From positions 62,001 to 126,000 of the forward strand of contig JAVEYW010000010.1 of assembly GCA_034003325.1 (NCBI GenBank): a DNA stretch of 64,000 nucleotides, in the 5' to 3' direction. The notes under the pieces are model-generated. The model was not told the DNA's origin, ran no database searches, and saw nothing but the letters and a program-made list of their open reading frames with translations. The translations under genes and the position numbers were made by a program. Numbering within the stretch: position 1 is the first letter of the stretch; each line of letters begins with the position of its first letter. Below are positions 35,227 to 43,419 of this stretch, piece by piece. Origin of the DNA: Desulfobacterales bacterium. Its GTDB lineage: Bacteria; Desulfobacterota; Desulfobacteria; Desulfobacterales; JAFDDL01.

Positions 35227-35852
35227 AGCTAACGATTGTGGGATGCGGCCCCGGCGCTCCGGAATATTTGACCGTGGCAGGCAGGCAAGCTATCGCGGGG
35301 GCCGAGGTTCTAGTGGGAGCGCCCCGGTTGCTGACTCTCTTTGCCACGCCGGCCCATGAAAAAATTACCTTTGAGGCCGACATTGACGGCTTGATAGCGG
35401 TCATTGCTGCTCGGCGTCCCCATGCGGCCATCGCGGTCCTGGTAAGCGGTGATCCCGGACTCTGCAGCCTGGCGGGATCACTGCTTCGCCGGTTGGGACG
35501 AGACACCTGTGACGTGATTCCCGGCGTCAGTTCGGTTCAACTGGCCTTTGCGCGTCTGGGACTTGATTGGCGCGACGCCCGGATTCTCTCCGCTCACACC
35601 AGCATTCCCGATGCGACGGCGGCGGACCTGGCCGCCTTCAACGCAATTGTGATTCTCGCGGGACACCGGCACGCGAAGGATTGGATTGCCGACTTGGCGG
35701 AGGCCTTTGGGAACACGCGCACCCTGGTCGTGTGCGAGGACTTGACCCTTCAAAGTGAAAAGATTTACCGGGTTCCGGCCGCGGCGTTCCGCCGGCTCGA
35801 GATCTCCACCCGAACCATCGTGCTGCTTCTGAAAAAGGATATGGACATATGA
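35217..35852 (+). CDS. cbiE: Cobalt-precorrin-7 C5-methyltransferase
   Basis: A 211-residue SAM-dependent tetrapyrrole methylase: glycine-rich start TIVGCGPGAPEYLTVAG, SGDPGLCSLAGSLLRRLG, and VIPGVSSVQLAFARLGLDW followed by ARILSAHT are the CbiE landmarks. CbiE is often fused or adjacent to CbiT, the C15-methyltransferase/decarboxylase. Here CbiE is alone and no CbiT is present in the window. The start overlaps cbiD by 10 bases. Confidence 0.92.
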   Translation: MAVKLTIVGCGPGAPEYLTVAGRQAIAGAEVLVGAPRLLTLFATPAHEKITFEADIDGLIAVIAARRPHAAIAVLVSGDPGLCSLAGSLLRRLGRDTCDVIPGVSSVQLAFARLGLDWRDARILSAHTSIPDATAADLAAFNAIVILAGHRHAKDWIADLAEAFGNTRTLVVCEDLTLQSEKIYRVPAAAFRRLEISTRTIVLLLKKDMDI

Positions 35853-36577
35853 CAACAGGAACACTTTACGGCATTGGCATCGGCCCGGGAGATCCGGACC
35901 TGATTACGGTTAAGGGGGCAGCGCTGCTTTCCCGATGCCGCCATGTCGTGGTACCCAAGGCATCACAATCCGCCGACAGTGTGGCGCTTCGCATTATTCA
36001 AAAGCATCTTCACCCAGCTGCTATAATTCATGAAAGGGTCTTTCCCATGGTGACGCACCAGGAGACGCTTCAAGCCCGGTGGGGAGAGTCCGCCGCCTGT
36101 GTCGCATCGTTACTGGCCCAGGGAGAAGATGTCTGTTTCCCGACGCTGGGCGACACCTTCCTTTATTCCACCTACATCTATCTTGTCCGATCGTTGCGAA
36201 CTATCGCGCCCGAAGCGCGCATCGTGACCATTCCCGGTGTTGCCGCGTTCAGCGCCGCAGCCGCCGCCACCGAATTTGCGGTGGGCGAAGGCAAGCAGCC
36301 CGTCACCATCATTCCGGCCGCAGACGATTTGACGGACCTTAAACATGCGCTGAACCGAAGCGGCACAGTGGTCATCATGAAGGTCGGCCGTCGGCTCGAT
36401 GCGGTGCTCGATCTGCTCGAAGCGCATAACGCGTTAGAAACAGGTGTGTTTGCCGCCCATGTCGGCATGCCGGAAGAACATGTGGAAACGGACCTTCGAA
36501 AGCTGCGGGGACGCAACGCGCAAACCGGTTACCTTTCCATCATTCTGACCAAACCGGGAATGGAGGATTCTGAATGA
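35849..36577 (+). CDS. cbiL: Cobalt-precorrin-2 C20-methyltransferase
   Basis: The 242-residue methylase opens with LYGIGIGPGDPDLITVKGA, then VCFPTLGDTFLYSTYIYL and a TIPGVAAFSAAAAAT segment, diagnostic of CbiL/CobI rather than the other methylases, together with NRSGTVVIMKVGR near the C-terminus. It overlaps cbiE and cbiF by 4 bases each (ATGA junctions), pointing to translational coupling. Confidence 0.93.
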   Translation: MTTGTLYGIGIGPGDPDLITVKGAALLSRCRHVVVPKASQSADSVALRIIQKHLHPAAIIHERVFPMVTHQETLQARWGESAACVASLLAQGEDVCFPTLGDTFLYSTYIYLVRSLRTIAPEARIVTIPGVAAFSAAAAATEFAVGEGKQPVTIIPAADDLTDLKHALNRSGTVVIMKVGRRLDAVLDLLEAHNALETGVFAAHVGMPEEHVETDLRKLRGRNAQTGYLSIILTKPGMEDSE

Positions 36578-37323
36578 AAGTTTATTTTGTCGGCGCCGGA
36601 CCGGGAGACCCCGACCTGTTGACCCGGAAAGCCGAACGGCTCTTGCGAACGTCCCGAATTTGCATCTACGCGGGCTCCCTGGTCAGTCCGGCGATTATCG
36701 GCCTTTTGCCGCCGTCGGCCGAAATGCATGATTCCGCGGGACTCACCCACGCGCAGGTGATCGACTTGATGCGAGAAGCCCAGCAAAGAGAGATGGATGT
36801 CGTGCGGCTTCACACGGGTGACCCCACCCTCTATAGCGCCATCGGCGAGCAGATAAGCGACTTGCAACGTCACGGCATCGCCTGCGAGGTGGTTCCGGGG
36901 ATAAGCGCCTTTCAGGCGGCCGCAGCCGCCCTTTGCTGGGAGCTGACCATTCCGGAAATGACACAAAGCATCGTGCTCACCCGAACGCCAGGGCGGACGC
37001 CCGTGCCGGCCTCGGAAACCCTCGAGCGATTCGCCGAAACCGGCGCCACACTATGCCTCTTTCTGTCCATCCATGATATTGAGCGGTTTGCGAAAATGCT
37101 CACCGGGTATTACGGTAAAAATTGCCCGGCCGCGGTGGTCTATCACGCCTCGTGGCCGGATGAGCAAATTGTCCGGGGCACGCTTGCCGACATCGCGGAG
37201 AAAGTGACCGCAGCCGGCATCACCAAAACAGCGCTCTTTATGGTTCGGCGGGAGCCGCAGGGAGCCAGGTCGCGTCTCTACGCGCCCGATTTTGCTCACG
37301 GCTATCGCGGGGATGGAAAGTAA
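36574..37323 (+). CDS. cbiF: Cobalt-precorrin-4 C11-methyltransferase
   Basis: A 249-residue SAM methylase with the CbiF/CobM landmarks VYFVGAGPGDPDLLTRKAER, YAGSLVSPAII, RLHTGDPTLYSAIGEQ, VPGISAFQAAAAAL and the ELTIPEMTQSIVLTR segment. It acts just before CbiG opens the lactone ring in the anaerobic route. Start at ATG 36574, overlapping the cbiL stop. Confidence 0.94.
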   Translation: MKVYFVGAGPGDPDLLTRKAERLLRTSRICIYAGSLVSPAIIGLLPPSAEMHDSAGLTHAQVIDLMREAQQREMDVVRLHTGDPTLYSAIGEQISDLQRHGIACEVVPGISAFQAAAAALCWELTIPEMTQSIVLTRTPGRTPVPASETLERFAETGATLCLFLSIHDIERFAKMLTGYYGKNCPAAVVYHASWPDEQIVRGTLADIAEKVTAAGITKTALFMVRREPQGARSRLYAPDFAHGYRGDGK

Positions 37324-37324
37324 C

Positions 37325-38095
37325 ATGCCGGATATCATCACCCTTTCACCCATCGGCGCCGAGGTGGCGCGCACCCTCGCGGCAAGTATGCCGGCGAGCA
37401 GACTGCATTTTCATGAAACGGTTGCGGAGGTGCGACCTGCCGCATCCTTTACGCGCGTTGCGGAACTTGTCTGCGCACTTTTTTCAACGACCGACGGAAT
37501 GGTTTTTATCGGGCCCTGCGGCGTGATGGTAAGGGCCGTGGGGCCGCATCTTCAGAGCAAGTTTTCGGATCCGCCGGTGGTCGTGGTGGATGTGCTCGCA
37601 AGATACGCCGTCAGTCTTCTAAGCGGTCATGAAGGCGGCGCCAACGACCTTTGCGTGAGAATAGCCAATATTCTCGGCGCCGAACCGGTGATCACCACGA
37701 CCTCTGAAGCGGCCCGAACCATCATTGTCGGCATCGGGTGCCGCAGGCATTGCGCCGCCCGAGCCATTACCGAAGCGGTTCGTTGGGCGCTCCATGAAGC
37801 AGGGGCAACGGAAAAAGAGGTGCGCTTTCTCGCCACCGCCGATATCAAGGCTCAGGAGCCCGGATTGATTCAGGCGGCCCTGGATCTCGGCATTCCGCTT
37901 CGGCTGATTCCATCAGCGCAGATTCGAGCCTGCCGGCTGGAATTTACACCCACGCCCCTTGCGAAAAAAAAAGTCAATTTACCTGCAGTGGCCGAACCCT
38001 CGGCACTGCTGGCAGGAAGGAGGACGGCATTAATACTACCCAAAATGATACGAAACGGGGTGACCGTGGCCCTTGCCCGGGAAAACTCTTTGTAG
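37325..38095 (+). CDS. cbiG: Cobalt-precorrin-5A hydrolase
   Basis: Opens the delta-lactone ring and releases acetaldehyde. The 256-residue protein shows MVFIGPCGVMVRAVGPHLQS, VVVVDVLARYAVSLLSGHEG and ITTTSEA in the N-terminal half and VGIGCRRHC in the C-terminal half, matching CbiG. ATG 37325 (GGAAAG upstream) starts MPDIITLSPIG and is preferred to in-frame starts at 37292 or 37313. The 3' end overlaps the probable cbiH start by 67 bases in another frame. Confidence 0.93.
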   Translation: MPDIITLSPIGAEVARTLAASMPASRLHFHETVAEVRPAASFTRVAELVCALFSTTDGMVFIGPCGVMVRAVGPHLQSKFSDPPVVVVDVLARYAVSLLSGHEGGANDLCVRIANILGAEPVITTTSEAARTIIVGIGCRRHCAARAITEAVRWALHEAGATEKEVRFLATADIKAQEPGLIQAALDLGIPLRLIPSAQIRACRLEFTPTPLAKKKVNLPAVAEPSALLAGRRTALILPKMIRNGVTVALARENSL

Positions 38096-38808
38096 TCGGC
38101 ATCGGTCCAGGAGACGCGGCCGATCGCACGCACCGCGCCGAAACCGCGATCGCCCAAAGCCGCGTGGTGGTGGGGTATTCCCCTTACCTTTCCAACATCG
38201 CAGACCTGATTGACGGCAAGGAACGGATCGCTACCGGCATGACCCGGGAAGAAGCGCGGTGCCGGGCCGCCATTGAGCGCGCTTATGATGGGGAAATCGT
38301 GGCCCTGATTTCTTCGGGTGATTCGGGTGTATACGGCATGGCAGGGCTATCCATCGAAATGGCGCATCGCATCGCACCCGGGCTGACGATCGAAATTATT
38401 CCCGGTGTTTCTGCTGCCAACGCCGCAGCCGCCGCCATGGGCGCACCACTCATGCTCGATTATGCGGTGATCAGCCTCAGCGATTTATTGGTGCCCTGGG
38501 ACATGATTCGGCATCGTTTGGAAGCCGTCGCCGCCGCCGATCTGGTGACGGCGCTTTATAACCCGCGTTCCAATAAACGAATCCACCAGATAGAAGAAGC
38601 CGTGGCGATTTTTCTTCGCAATCGACCGGCCACGACACCCGCTGGCGTTGGAACGGCCGTTGGCCTGCCGGAAGCACGTATCGAAATCACCACCCTGGAA
38701 AACCTCTTGTCGCTCGAAATCACCATGCGAAGTATGGTGATTATCGGCAACACCCATTCACAACACATTGACGGCTGGTTTGTGACACCCCGGGGGTACA
38801 CGCTGTGA
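38029..38808 (+). CDS. cbiH: Cobalt-precorrin-3B C17-methyltransferase with probable ATT start
   Basis: The catalytic body is CbiH/CobJ: LFVVGIGPGDAADRTHRAE (SAM glycine loop), SSGDSGVYGMAG, IPGVSAANAAAAAMGAPL, and YNPRSNKR. The first ATG/GTG/TTG in frame (GTG 38164) would delete the essential glycine loop, which is encoded further upstream. The only plausible start I see in the open frame is ATT at 38029, with a perfect AAGGAGG (38017-38023) five bases before it, giving 259 residues and overlapping cbiG by 67 bases. An ATT start is rare and would mean weak translation. A frameshift-fused CbiG-CbiH protein is the alternative. Confidence 0.88.
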   Translation: MNTTQNDTKRGDRGPCPGKLFVVGIGPGDAADRTHRAETAIAQSRVVVGYSPYLSNIADLIDGKERIATGMTREEARCRAAIERAYDGEIVALISSGDSGVYGMAGLSIEMAHRIAPGLTIEIIPGVSAANAAAAAMGAPLMLDYAVISLSDLLVPWDMIRHRLEAVAAADLVTALYNPRSNKRIHQIEEAVAIFLRNRPATTPAGVGTAVGLPEARIEITTLENLLSLEITMRSMVIIGNTHSQHIDGWFVTPRGYTL

Positions 38809-39572
38809 TATTGCTGATAGGAGGAACCACCGAGGCCGTTCCCATCGCTCGCGCGCTTTTGAAAGTGGGCTTTAACGTGCTGCTCTCGACGGCGACTGAA
38901 ATGCCTCCCCGCGGCAGGCTGCCGGCCCGCTTGTTGCGGCGAACCGGGATGCTGAATGCGGAAGGACTTGCGGAATTGATTTGCACGCGGGGAATTTGCG
39001 CCGTGGTCGATGCGACACATCCCTATGCCGCCGCGACAAGCGTCAATGCCTGGCATGCCTGCCGACAAACGGGAATTCCCTATGTGGCCTTTGATCGCCC
39101 AAGCACCATCGGGGCGTCATTCGACGGCATTTTCCGGGCGGAAAATCACGCGGAAGCGGCGGCTCTGGCCTGCTCGTTCAGGCACCCCGTGCTGTTGACC
39201 ATCGGGGTTCGCAACCTTTCCCCCTACGTTTCAGCCGCCCGGCAACAGGGAATACCGCTTGTGGCCCGCGTGTTGAATCATCCGTCCTCCCTGGCCGAAT
39301 GCCGCCGCGCAGGCCTGACCACGGAAGAGATCGTCTGCGCCAACGGCCCTTTTTCCGTAACGGAGAATGCCTCACTGATCATGAGGCATCATATCGGCGT
39401 TTTGGTAACCAAGGATAGCGGCGACGCCGGCGGGGTTCGGACCAAAATCATCGCCGCTCAAACATCCAAGTGCCGGGTGGTGGTGATTCGACGCCCGGCT
39501 CGCCCCCAGGCAGGCTACCCCTCCATCGCCGCTCTCCTGAAAGCCATTCAAACCATCTTTCCGGGCTGCTAA
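38805..39572 (+). CDS. cbiJ: Cobalt-precorrin-6A reductase
   Basis: The 255-residue reductase starts with GTG at 38805, overlapping the cbiH stop. LLIGGTTEAVPIARAL, VDATHPYAAATSVNAW and LVTKDSGDAGGVRTKI match the CbiJ/CobK family. It uses NAD(P)H to reduce the macrocycle. It is the last gene of the corrinoid operon and converges on the FMN-binding gene with a 4-base overlap. Confidence 0.93.
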   Translation: MILLIGGTTEAVPIARALLKVGFNVLLSTATEMPPRGRLPARLLRRTGMLNAEGLAELICTRGICAVVDATHPYAAATSVNAWHACRQTGIPYVAFDRPSTIGASFDGIFRAENHAEAAALACSFRHPVLLTIGVRNLSPYVSAARQQGIPLVARVLNHPSSLAECRRAGLTTEEIVCANGPFSVTENASLIMRHHIGVLVTKDSGDAGGVRTKIIAAQTSKCRVVVIRRPARPQAGYPSIAALLKAIQTIFPGC

Positions 39573-40972: not shown

Positions 40973-42160
40973 ATGGCTGAGATCATCCTCGCGGCCAAGC
41001 GGGAAAAATCGCTGCTGCGACGGCATCCGTGGGTATTTTCGGGCGCGATCGCACATATCCGAGGCAACCCCCCGTCCGCGGGTGAAACAGTGGATATTCG
41101 GGCTGCCGACGGCGCTTTTCTCGGAAAAGGCGCCTTTTCTCCCACTTCGAAAATACGGGTCCGGGTCTGGACCTTTGAGGCCGATGAAGAAATTACTCCC
41201 CTGTTTTTCAGCCGTCGCCTGGAAAGGGCGCTTCGGGCCCGTGCCACCCTGGTGCGAGAAGGGCATACCGGCTATCGCCTCGTCAATGCGGAGTCGGACG
41301 GGCTGCCGGGCGTGATGATCGACCGGTGCGGCGACTATCTCGTCGGGCAGTTTTTAACGACCGGCGCGGAATATTGGAAAACCACGATAGTTTCCGCTTT
41401 AAATAGGTTAGTGCCCAACCGCGGCATTTTTGAGCGATCCGATACGGATGTGCGATTAAAAGAGGGGCTGCCCAAGCAAATCGGACTGCTTTCAGGTCAA
41501 AAACCGCCGGACTTGGTTGAAATCAGGGAGGGGGCATATCGATTTCTCGTGGATATTCGGCAAGGTCACAAAACCGGGTTTTATCTTGACCAGCGGGACA
41601 ACCGGGCCGCTGTCGCGCCCTACGCCAAAGGAGCCGAGGTTCTGAACTGTTTTTCGTATACCGGTGGATTTGCCGTGGCGGCCCTTAACGCCGGGGCAAT
41701 CCGTGTCGTCAATGTGGATTCATCAAGCGACGCGCTGGCTTTGGCCCGTAAAAACATCAACCTCAATTCGCCCGATGCAACCGGCGTAACCTATCTCGAA
41801 GGCGATGTCTTTACCGTGCTGCGCGCCTTTCGGGAAGAAAACCGATTGTTTGATCTCATCATTCTGGATCCGCCCAAATTCGCAGACTCCCGGCAACACC
41901 TGGAAAAGGCCGCCCGAGGGTATAAGGACATTAATCTCCTGGCCTTTAAACTGCTTCGGCCCGAAGGCTTTCTAATAACCTTTTCCTGCTCCGGGCTCAT
42001 GACTCCTGATCTGTTTATAAAAACAATCGCCTGGGCCGCCCTGGATGCGGGCCGCGAAGCGCAAATTCTTCGATATCTGAATCAGGCAAGCGATCACCCG
42101 ACCGCGCTCAACTTTCCGGAAGCAAGCTATTTAAAAGGTCTCATATGCCGCGTGACGTGA
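40973..42160 (+). CDS. rlmI: PUA-class I rRNA (cytosine-C5) methyltransferase, RlmI-like
   Basis: The 395-residue protein has an N-terminal PUA-like domain (RRHPWVFSGAIAHIRGNPPS, then GAFLGKGAFSP) and a C-terminal SAM domain: GHKTGFYLDQRDNRAAVA, VLNCFSYTGGFAVAALNAGA and FDLIILDPPKFADS, then KDINLLAFKLLRPEGFLITFSCSG segments. The DPPKF and SCSG motifs match RlmI, which methylates 23S rRNA (C1962 in E. coli). ATG 40973 with AAAGG upstream is chosen over TTG 40967. Confidence 0.92.
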   Translation: MAEIILAAKREKSLLRRHPWVFSGAIAHIRGNPPSAGETVDIRAADGAFLGKGAFSPTSKIRVRVWTFEADEEITPLFFSRRLERALRARATLVREGHTGYRLVNAESDGLPGVMIDRCGDYLVGQFLTTGAEYWKTTIVSALNRLVPNRGIFERSDTDVRLKEGLPKQIGLLSGQKPPDLVEIREGAYRFLVDIRQGHKTGFYLDQRDNRAAVAPYAKGAEVLNCFSYTGGFAVAALNAGAIRVVNVDSSSDALALARKNINLNSPDATGVTYLEGDVFTVLRAFREENRLFDLIILDPPKFADSRQHLEKAARGYKDINLLAFKLLRPEGFLITFSCSGLMTPDLFIKTIAWAALDAGREAQILRYLNQASDHPTALNFPEASYLKGLICRVT

Positions 42161-42233
42161 ATCGAACTTTTGACATTTCAAGGTGTCTTCGTTATAGACT
42201 GTGAGCATCATCAACCACCATAAGGATCAAAAC

Positions 42234-42854
42234 ATGGCGACACCATTACTACTTGAAATATTTTCCGATTACACCTGAGCGTGGTGCTATTTCGCTACCG
42301 TGAGTACCGAAAAGCTTCACAAAGAATACGATATCACCTTGCAATGGCGGGCCTTTCCACTTCATCCGGAAACGCCCGAAGAGGGAAGCTTGATTACCGA
42401 GCTTTTTGCCGGTCGCCCGGTCAACATTCCCAACATGATGCAAAAATTGCACAAAACGGCCGAGGAACTCGGCCTGCCCTTTGGCGATTTGGTCAAAACC
42501 TTTAACAGCCGCCTGGCTCAGGAGCTGGGGCTTTGGGCAGGAACCCAAAACAAAGGGGAGGAATTCCACTCGGCCGCCTTCAGGGCCTATTTCGTCGATG
42601 GAAAAAATATTGGAAACATACCGGTGCTGCTGGACTTGGCTGCTTCCGTGAATCTTCCTGTCGAAGCCGCCACGCAAGTTCTTGAGGACAGAACATTCAA
42701 GGCGGCTGTGGACCGGGACTGGGCTCTTGCGCGGGAAAAAGAGATTCAGGTGGTGCCGACCTTTGTGGCAAACGGGGAAAAACTGGTGGGGGCGAAACCT
42801 TACGAGGTTTTGGCGAAATTTATAGAAACCAACGGGGCCGGCAAAAGGTTATAA
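42234..42854 (+). CDS. FrnE-like DsbA oxidoreductase with in-frame UGA at the active site (candidate selenoprotein)
   Basis: The gene opens at ATG 42234 (TAAGGA upstream). It reads MATPLLLEIFSDYT, then UGA (codon 15, 42276-42278), then AWCYF and on without a stop to 42854, 206 codons in all, the usual FrnE length. FrnE/DsbA proteins have SDxxCPWCY here, so the UGA replaces the first, nucleophilic Cys of the CxxC, giving U-A-W-C. The downstream sequence keeps the family pattern (WRAFPLHPETPEEG, then the cis-Pro strand VVPTFVANGE). A weak stem (GGTGC 42283-42287 with GTACC 42304-42308) follows the UGA at SECIS distance. Without read-through only a 14-residue peptide or an N-terminally truncated, inactive protein would form. 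It acts as a predicted cytoplasmic thiol/selenol oxidoreductase, as no signal peptide is present. Confidence 0.85.
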
Positions 42855-43023: not shown

Positions 43024-43419
43024 CTAATCCGTCAAATAGATCGTCAGGGGAATAACATGCAGTTCGCGGGAAAGCTCCCGGGTGGCGCCAAGCTGCCATT
43101 TTTCGATTTGACACCGGCCTTCGACGAGTTTTCCGATATCGTCCACAAGACCTTTAATGTCAATCACCGGATGGCGGGAAAAAACCTGGGGCAGTCCATA
43201 GGTCAAATGGCATCCGAGGCACTTTCCGGGCCGTTGAATGAGTTGCAATTCAAAATGCAAGCTGTTGCAATTATGCTCAATAAAAGAAAGGCGAATATCA
43301 TAGGCGCCCTCGGACGCATCGCCGAAAAGCGCATCAAAAAACCGGTCTGATTTTTCATCGGGAAAAAGGGATGCCAATGTTTCGGGAGTGAAAAGCGCGT
43401 TGTGGTCGTTTTTGCTCAT
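43024..43419 (-). CDS. Conserved small protein of unknown function with CxxC
   Basis: Encodes 131 residues, cytoplasmic by composition. FPDEKSDRFFDALFGDASEG, the RPGKCLGCHLTYGLPQVF segment and the C-terminal SRELHVIPLTIY look like a compact conserved domain I associate with hypothetical proteins of Desulfobacterota, but the function is unknown. The KCLGC motif could bind a metal or be redox-active. It is flanked by the DsbA-like selenoprotein candidate and a hydrolase on the opposite strand, with no operon partner. Confidence 0.65.
   Translation of the reverse strand: MSKNDHNALFTPETLASLFPDEKSDRFFDALFGDASEGAYDIRLSFIEHNCNSLHFELQLIQRPGKCLGCHLTYGLPQVFSRHPVIDIKGLVDDIGKLVEGRCQIEKWQLGATRELSRELHVIPLTIYLTD

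What the first reader, a model, noticed from the sequence alone, without database searches (positions are those of the whole stretch)
42234..42854. FrnE-like DsbA protein with UGA in place of the first active-site cysteine
The codon 15 UGA lies exactly where FrnE/DsbA proteins have the first Cys of CPWC, giving U-A-W-C. The frame is otherwise uninterrupted for 206 codons, carries a good ribosome-binding site and keeps the cis-Pro loop and family length. Selenocysteine at a thioredoxin-fold redox site is a known theme in Desulfobacterota, but gene callers would truncate this protein. I cannot say whether this subfamily is already recorded as selenocysteine-containing.
Basis: partly seen in the sequence, partly recalled or inferred. 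Interest (0 to 1): 0.85.

Follow-up and report, generated by a model that had tools for sequence, protein, structure and literature searches.

The report
Selenocysteine form of FrnE-type DsbA
This bacterial gene carries a 'stop' codon that is almost certainly read as selenocysteine at the active site of a thiol-handling enzyme of the FrnE/DsbA kind; the kind has been on record since 2005, so this is a sound new member, not a new discovery.

Summary
TGA at codon 15 (42276-42278) interrupts a 206-codon FrnE/DsbA frame exactly at the first active-site position (U-A-W-C). In 105 homologues with a readable site, 101 have TGA and 4 a Cys codon. A class-wide search gave 125 strong matches, 118 with an in-frame TGA. 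A short hairpin follows, its loop 20 nt after the TGA. It fits the published bacterial SECIS model and shows compensatory changes (33 double-changed cells against 8.2±2.3 in shuffles); Cys homologues have largely lost it. The genome encodes tRNA-Sec(UCA), SelA, a SelD with its own TGA, and two formate dehydrogenases with TGA. SelB was not found in the 46-contig draft, although 51 of 58 genomes searched in the order have it. The predicted fold matches Deinococcus FrnE best (TM 0.89). Specific to this copy: Ala where nearly all relatives have Pro, and a rewritten but still paired SECIS stem.

The parts
42222..42227 (+). ribosome-binding site AAGGAT, 6 nt before the ATG
   Evidence: sequence
42234..42854 (+). 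gene for a FrnE-type DsbA selenoprotein, 206 aa with TGA read as Sec, stop TAA
42276..42278 (+). [quoted passage not shown]
42285..42287 (+). Cys18 (TGC), the resolving cysteine of UxxC; the only other Cys/Sec residue of the protein
42290..42312 (+). bacterial SECIS-like hairpin: stem UUUCG-C-UAC / GUA-C-CGAAA with one C.C mismatch, loop CGUGA at 42299-42303, 20 nt after the UGA
42756..42758 (+). Pro175 of the Val-Pro-Thr loop (cis-Pro position of thioredoxin-fold oxidoreductases), invariant in the alignment
   Evidence: cis geometry inferred from the family

Best explanation
The gene encodes a cytoplasmic FrnE-type DsbA oxidoreductase whose catalytic residue is selenocysteine. The hairpin at 42290-42312 recruits SelB with Sec-tRNA(Sec), so that UGA 15 is decoded as Sec rather than terminating (shown: codon, hairpin, its covariation, tRNA-Sec, SelA, SelD; inferred: decoding itself and SelB). 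The Sec15 selenolate at the start of helix 1 attacks a disulfide, or another oxidised thiol substrate, and Cys18 resolves the mixed selenosulfide. Because the protein has no second cysteine pair and no evident N-terminal signal sequence, it is most likely a cytoplasmic disulfide reductase/isomerase recycled by an outside reductant such as thioredoxin (inferred from DrFrnE; substrate and reductant unknown).
For: TGA at the same codon in 101 of 105 homologues, Cys codons in the other 4. Class-wide: 118 of 125 matches of at least 200 bits carry an in-frame TGA. Hairpin: all 6 core pairs in 106 of 110 TGA rows, against 1-5 pairs in 15 Cys rows. 33 cells with changes on both sides against 8.2±2.3 in shuffles, 0/500 reach it. 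The hairpin meets the bSECIS criteria in PMC13188914 (5-nt loop, G at loop position 2, 20-nt spacing, MFE -11.8 to -13.0 kcal/mol). In the window the A-U pair of relatives has become G-C although both amino acids changed. Own genome: tRNA-Sec 74.4 bits with anticodon TCA, SelA 616 bits, SelD 377 bits with in-frame TGA, two FdhA over cut-off with in-frame TGA. AlphaFold2 pLDDT 97; top PDB match D. radiodurans FrnE, TM 0.89.
Against: SelB was not found in the window's draft genome by family model or by a relative's protein, nor beside hemW where some relatives have it. The MFE z-score of the window hairpin alone is only -1.4. One relative has TGG (Trp) at the site and one distant homologue has TAA. 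No protein-level evidence is available.
Confidence: 0.95

Rival explanations
1. The TGA is a sequencing or assembly error or a recent nonsense mutation in a Cys-containing FrnE gene (TGC/TGT to TGA).
For: The window's copy sits on a longish branch (0.45) and is a draft assembly; single-base exceptions do occur in related MAGs (TGG in L163, TAA in L180).
Against: The same TGA is in over 100 homologues and in all nearest neighbours except one; the hairpin is conserved and covaries; the frame is intact for 191 codons after the TGA.
Confidence: 0.01
2. This copy can no longer be decoded: the lineage lost SelB, so the UGA now terminates translation or only a GTG-started 184-aa product is made.
For: SelB was not found in the 46-contig, 97.6%-complete assembly.
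Against: selA, selC, a Sec-type selD and two Sec-type fdhA are intact, which is not expected after loss of SelB; 51 of 58 genomes searched in the order have SelB over the cut-off; compensatory change in this copy's own hairpin shows continued selection. A gap of about 2 kb is the simpler reading.
Confidence: 0.03
3. The organism reads TGA generally as Trp (code 4) and the residue is Trp.
For: One relative has TGG at this position (L163).
Against: All other sense codons at the site are Cys; Trp would remove the catalytic residue; tRNA-Sec with anticodon UCA and Sec-type SelD and FdhA are present.
Confidence: 0.005

Closest known systems
DsbA-like selenoprotein family (COG2761 / pfam01323, UxxC; 'DsbA-like protein form 1'): PMC1088965, PMC1794560, PMC2398784, PMC5029168, PMC13188914
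   Same: Same COG/Pfam, Sec at the first position of UxxC, bacterial SECIS right after the UGA, in deltaproteobacteria among others.
   Different: This copy has UAWC, where nearly all relatives found here have UPWC. The published sequences could not be aligned here, so identity at the subfamily level rests on the COG/Pfam assignment.
FrnE of Deinococcus radiodurans (DR_0659; PDB 5co3, 5coh, 5xwh)
   Same: Fold (TM 0.89, 29% identity), active-site position, cytoplasmic type.
   Different: DrFrnE has Cys (CPWC) and a C-terminal CXXXXC pair that regenerates it (PMC8945050); this protein has Sec and no other cysteines.
Sec-containing FrnE of Mamiellophyceae and M. viride (PMC6627142)
   Same: FrnE with Sec.
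   Different: Eukaryotic decoding; sequence not compared here.
GST kappa / HCCA isomerase
   Same: Related DsbA-type fold (TM about 0.75).
   Different: More distant in fold; this family keeps a U/C-x-x-C pair, whereas by general knowledge the kappa/HCCA group uses a Ser site with glutathione.

Membership tests
Bacterial selenoprotein (UGA-decoded Sec) | in-frame UGA aligned with UGA or Cys in homologues | tested here: met
   101 TGA and 4 Cys of 105; class-wide 118 of 125 strong matches with TGA
Bacterial selenoprotein (UGA-decoded Sec) | bSECIS hairpin: 3-9 nt loop, G in first two loop positions, 16-37 nt spacing, MFE at most -7.5 | tested here: met
   5-nt loop CGUGA, G second, 20 nt, -11.8 to -13.0 kcal/mol; covariation; criteria from PMC13188914
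Bacterial selenoprotein (UGA-decoded Sec) | selA, selC, selD in the genome | tested here: met
Bacterial selenoprotein (UGA-decoded Sec) | selB in the genome | tested here: inconclusive
   not found in the 46-contig draft; 51 of 58 genomes searched in the order have it over the cut-off
Bacterial selenoprotein (UGA-decoded Sec) | Sec shown in the protein | not testable with these tools
   needs 75Se labelling or mass spectrometry
FrnE subfamily of DsbA (COG2761) | DSBA domain over full length | tested here: met
   PF01323 116.9 bits against cut-off 25.6
FrnE subfamily of DsbA (COG2761) | closest solved relative is FrnE by sequence and fold | tested here: met
   5cp1/5cnw E 3.4e-17; 5co3 TM 0.89
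FrnE subfamily of DsbA (COG2761) | C-x-x-C (or U-x-x-C) active site with downstream invariant cis-Pro loop | tested here: met
   U15/C18 and invariant P175; cis geometry itself not measured
FrnE subfamily of DsbA (COG2761) | C-terminal CXXXXC pair (many but not all members, so not strictly defining; PMC8945050) | tested here: not met
   no Cys beyond residue 18; S. roseofulvus FrnE itself lacks it
Rcas_1661 family (seleno)lipoprotein, NF041057 | score over the curated cut-off | tested here: not met
   37.4 bits against 190

The most novel reading that the evidence does not exclude
In this FrnE clade Sec is the old and dominant state and the Cys forms are repeated later conversions, so it is one of few thiol-oxidoreductase families in which Sec is the rule. 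Within it the window's UAWC variant, unique among 125 rows read, marks a shift in redox properties.
Probability: 0.4. Interest if true: 0.4.

Novelty: new member of a known kind. Interest (0 to 1): 0.3.

Why it matters
It corrects a gene that ordinary ORF calling starts downstream of its active site, and NCBIfam release 20 gave no model over its cut-off for this protein. The aligned set of over 100 Sec forms and about 15 Cys forms is good material for a Sec-aware gene model and for asking why a disulfide enzyme of mostly anaerobic lineages keeps Sec. It does not open a new category.

Tried and rejected
Rfam search of 42150-42500: only chance matches. The alternative hairpin at alignment columns 5-11/21-27 often wins by energy but shows no covariation (3 double-changed cells against 5.1 in shuffles), so it was rejected as the SECIS. 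Conserved gene neighbourhood: none; the commonest neighbour cluster (response-regulator-like) occurs in 8 loci at scattered positions. SelB beside hemW, as in some relatives: not there. An alternative Sec codon in G230 (TAA at the Sec site): its tRNA-Sec has anticodon TCA, so no support. The best plasmid homologues are distant (about 30-34% identity) and mostly annotated as ordinary DsbA family.

Full report
What is there. The frame from ATG 42234 to TAA 42854 holds one TGA, codon 15, at 42276-42278. With TGA read as a residue the protein has 206 aa, and Pfam DSBA covers residues 7-197 at 116.9 bits. By sequence the only solved relatives are FrnE of Deinococcus radiodurans (E 3.4e-17) and SCO1869. 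An AlphaFold2 model from 57 aligned sequences (mean pLDDT 97.2) matches FrnE best (5co3, TM 0.89, 1.9 A), ahead of SCO1869, YjbH, GST kappa and HCCA isomerase. A standard ORF list begins this gene at GTG 42300, after the active site.

Is the TGA more than chance? Among 105 homologues with a readable site from two searches, 101 have TGA at the aligned codon and 4 have TGC/TGT (one search was a first pass that misread minus-strand loci). The peptide patterns spell Cys at the site, so they do not favour TGA. In 241 genomes of the class, 125 matches reach 200 bits; 118 carry an in-frame TGA and 7 none (counted by hand from its table). The codon of all 7 was read: 6 are Cys (TGC/TGT) and one is TGG (L163). 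The TGG copy is nested among TGA copies, keeps the hairpin, and comes from a 530-contig assembly. A distant full-length homologue (L180) has TAA at the site; that genome's tRNA-Sec has anticodon TCA, so it is probably a dead copy or an error.

The SECIS. The 87 aligned TGA homologues show no gap in the 48 nt from the TGA. A hairpin with a 5-nt apical loop 20 nt after the UGA (CGGGC, CGUGC, AGGUC; CGUGA in the window) recurs. Counted on 87 sequences, the stem has 33 double-changed cells (shuffles 8.2±2.3, 0/500) and a covariation score of 0.164 against 0.096±0.005. A competing stem overlapping it shows none. Of six core pairs, 106 of 110 TGA rows keep all six and the other 4 keep five, while 15 Cys rows keep 1 to 5. 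Against kin such as L022 the window's copy has Ile to Ala and Ile to Thr changes that turn an A-U pair into G-C and U.U into C.C. [quoted passage not shown] PMC13188914) is met (-11.8 to -13.0 kcal/mol). The shuffles do not remove shared ancestry, so the covariation figures are strong but not probabilities; the z-score of the window hairpin alone is modest (-1.4).

The machinery. The window's genome (4.62 Mb, 46 contigs, 97.6% complete) has tRNA-Sec (74.4 bits, anticodon TCA), SelA (616 bits), SelD (377 bits, itself with one in-frame TGA) and two formate dehydrogenases over cut-off with one in-frame TGA each. SelB was not found by family model or with a relative's SelB; the hits look like EF-Tu, IF2, LepA and EF-G by frame length, LepA being recognisable in its translation. 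SelB lies near hemW in some relatives, but not here. 51 of 58 genomes searched in the order have SelB over the cut-off. I read this as an assembly gap; it is the one unmet test.

How it works (mostly inferred). Sec15 is the nucleophile and Cys18 resolves. There is no other Cys, hence no C-terminal CXXXXC shuttle as in DrFrnE (PMC8945050). No N-terminal signal is apparent by eye and FrnE proteins are predicted cytoplasmic (PMC8945050), so a cytoplasmic disulfide reductase or isomerase recycled by an outside reductant is most likely. There is no conserved gene neighbour, so the substrate is open. Upstream lies an RlmI-like rRNA methyltransferase.

Evolution. On a 120-row tree the main clade holds 102 Sec rows, 8 Cys rows and the TGG row, and needs at least 5 changes between Sec and Cys. 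Cys rows are scattered inside Sec rows, which suggests repeated Sec to Cys conversion; direction was not formally tested. The window groups with Sec rows of its own order, with modest support, and has no close kin (best 64% identity). It is the only UAWC among 125 rows read (101 UPWC, 1 UQWC).

What is known. DsbA-like selenoproteins under COG2761 were reported in the Sargasso Sea study of 2005 (PMC1088965). They were listed for Anaeromyxobacter, Desulfovibrio and Desulfotomaculum in 2006 (PMC1794560), as three pfam01323 groups in the ocean sampling study of 2008 (PMC2398784), and as 45 proteins in 41 organisms, tenth in the 2016 ranking (PMC5029168). The 2026 review lists 'DsbA-like protein form 1, UxxC' (PMC13188914). 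Sec-FrnE is also recorded in green algae (PMC6627142). So this is a new member of a known kind.

Noticed in passing
L163:1501-2121 (G215:C333): A close homologue has TGG (Trp) at the Sec codon while keeping the SECIS hairpin; sister copies L021 and L167 have TGA. Single-base error or a dead enzyme.
   Followed up: partly
L180:33-635 (G230:C95): A full-length distant homologue has TAA at the Sec position (SDYL*PFCWL) followed by a strong hairpin; the genome's tRNA-Sec has anticodon TCA.
   Followed up: partly
window's genome G000: selB was not found in the draft although selA, selC, a Sec-type selD and two Sec-type fdhA are present.
   Followed up: partly
window 35849-39572 +: Run of cobalamin-type genes: by eye CbiL-, CbiF-, CbiG- and CbiH-like frames, ending in CbiJ, which Pfam confirms.
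   Followed up: no
window 43024-43419 -: 131-aa frame after the selenoprotein gene with no Pfam or NCBIfam match.
   Followed up: no
L172, L173, L174: A small Cys clade with CTWC in place of U/CPWC and no SECIS hairpin left.
   Followed up: no
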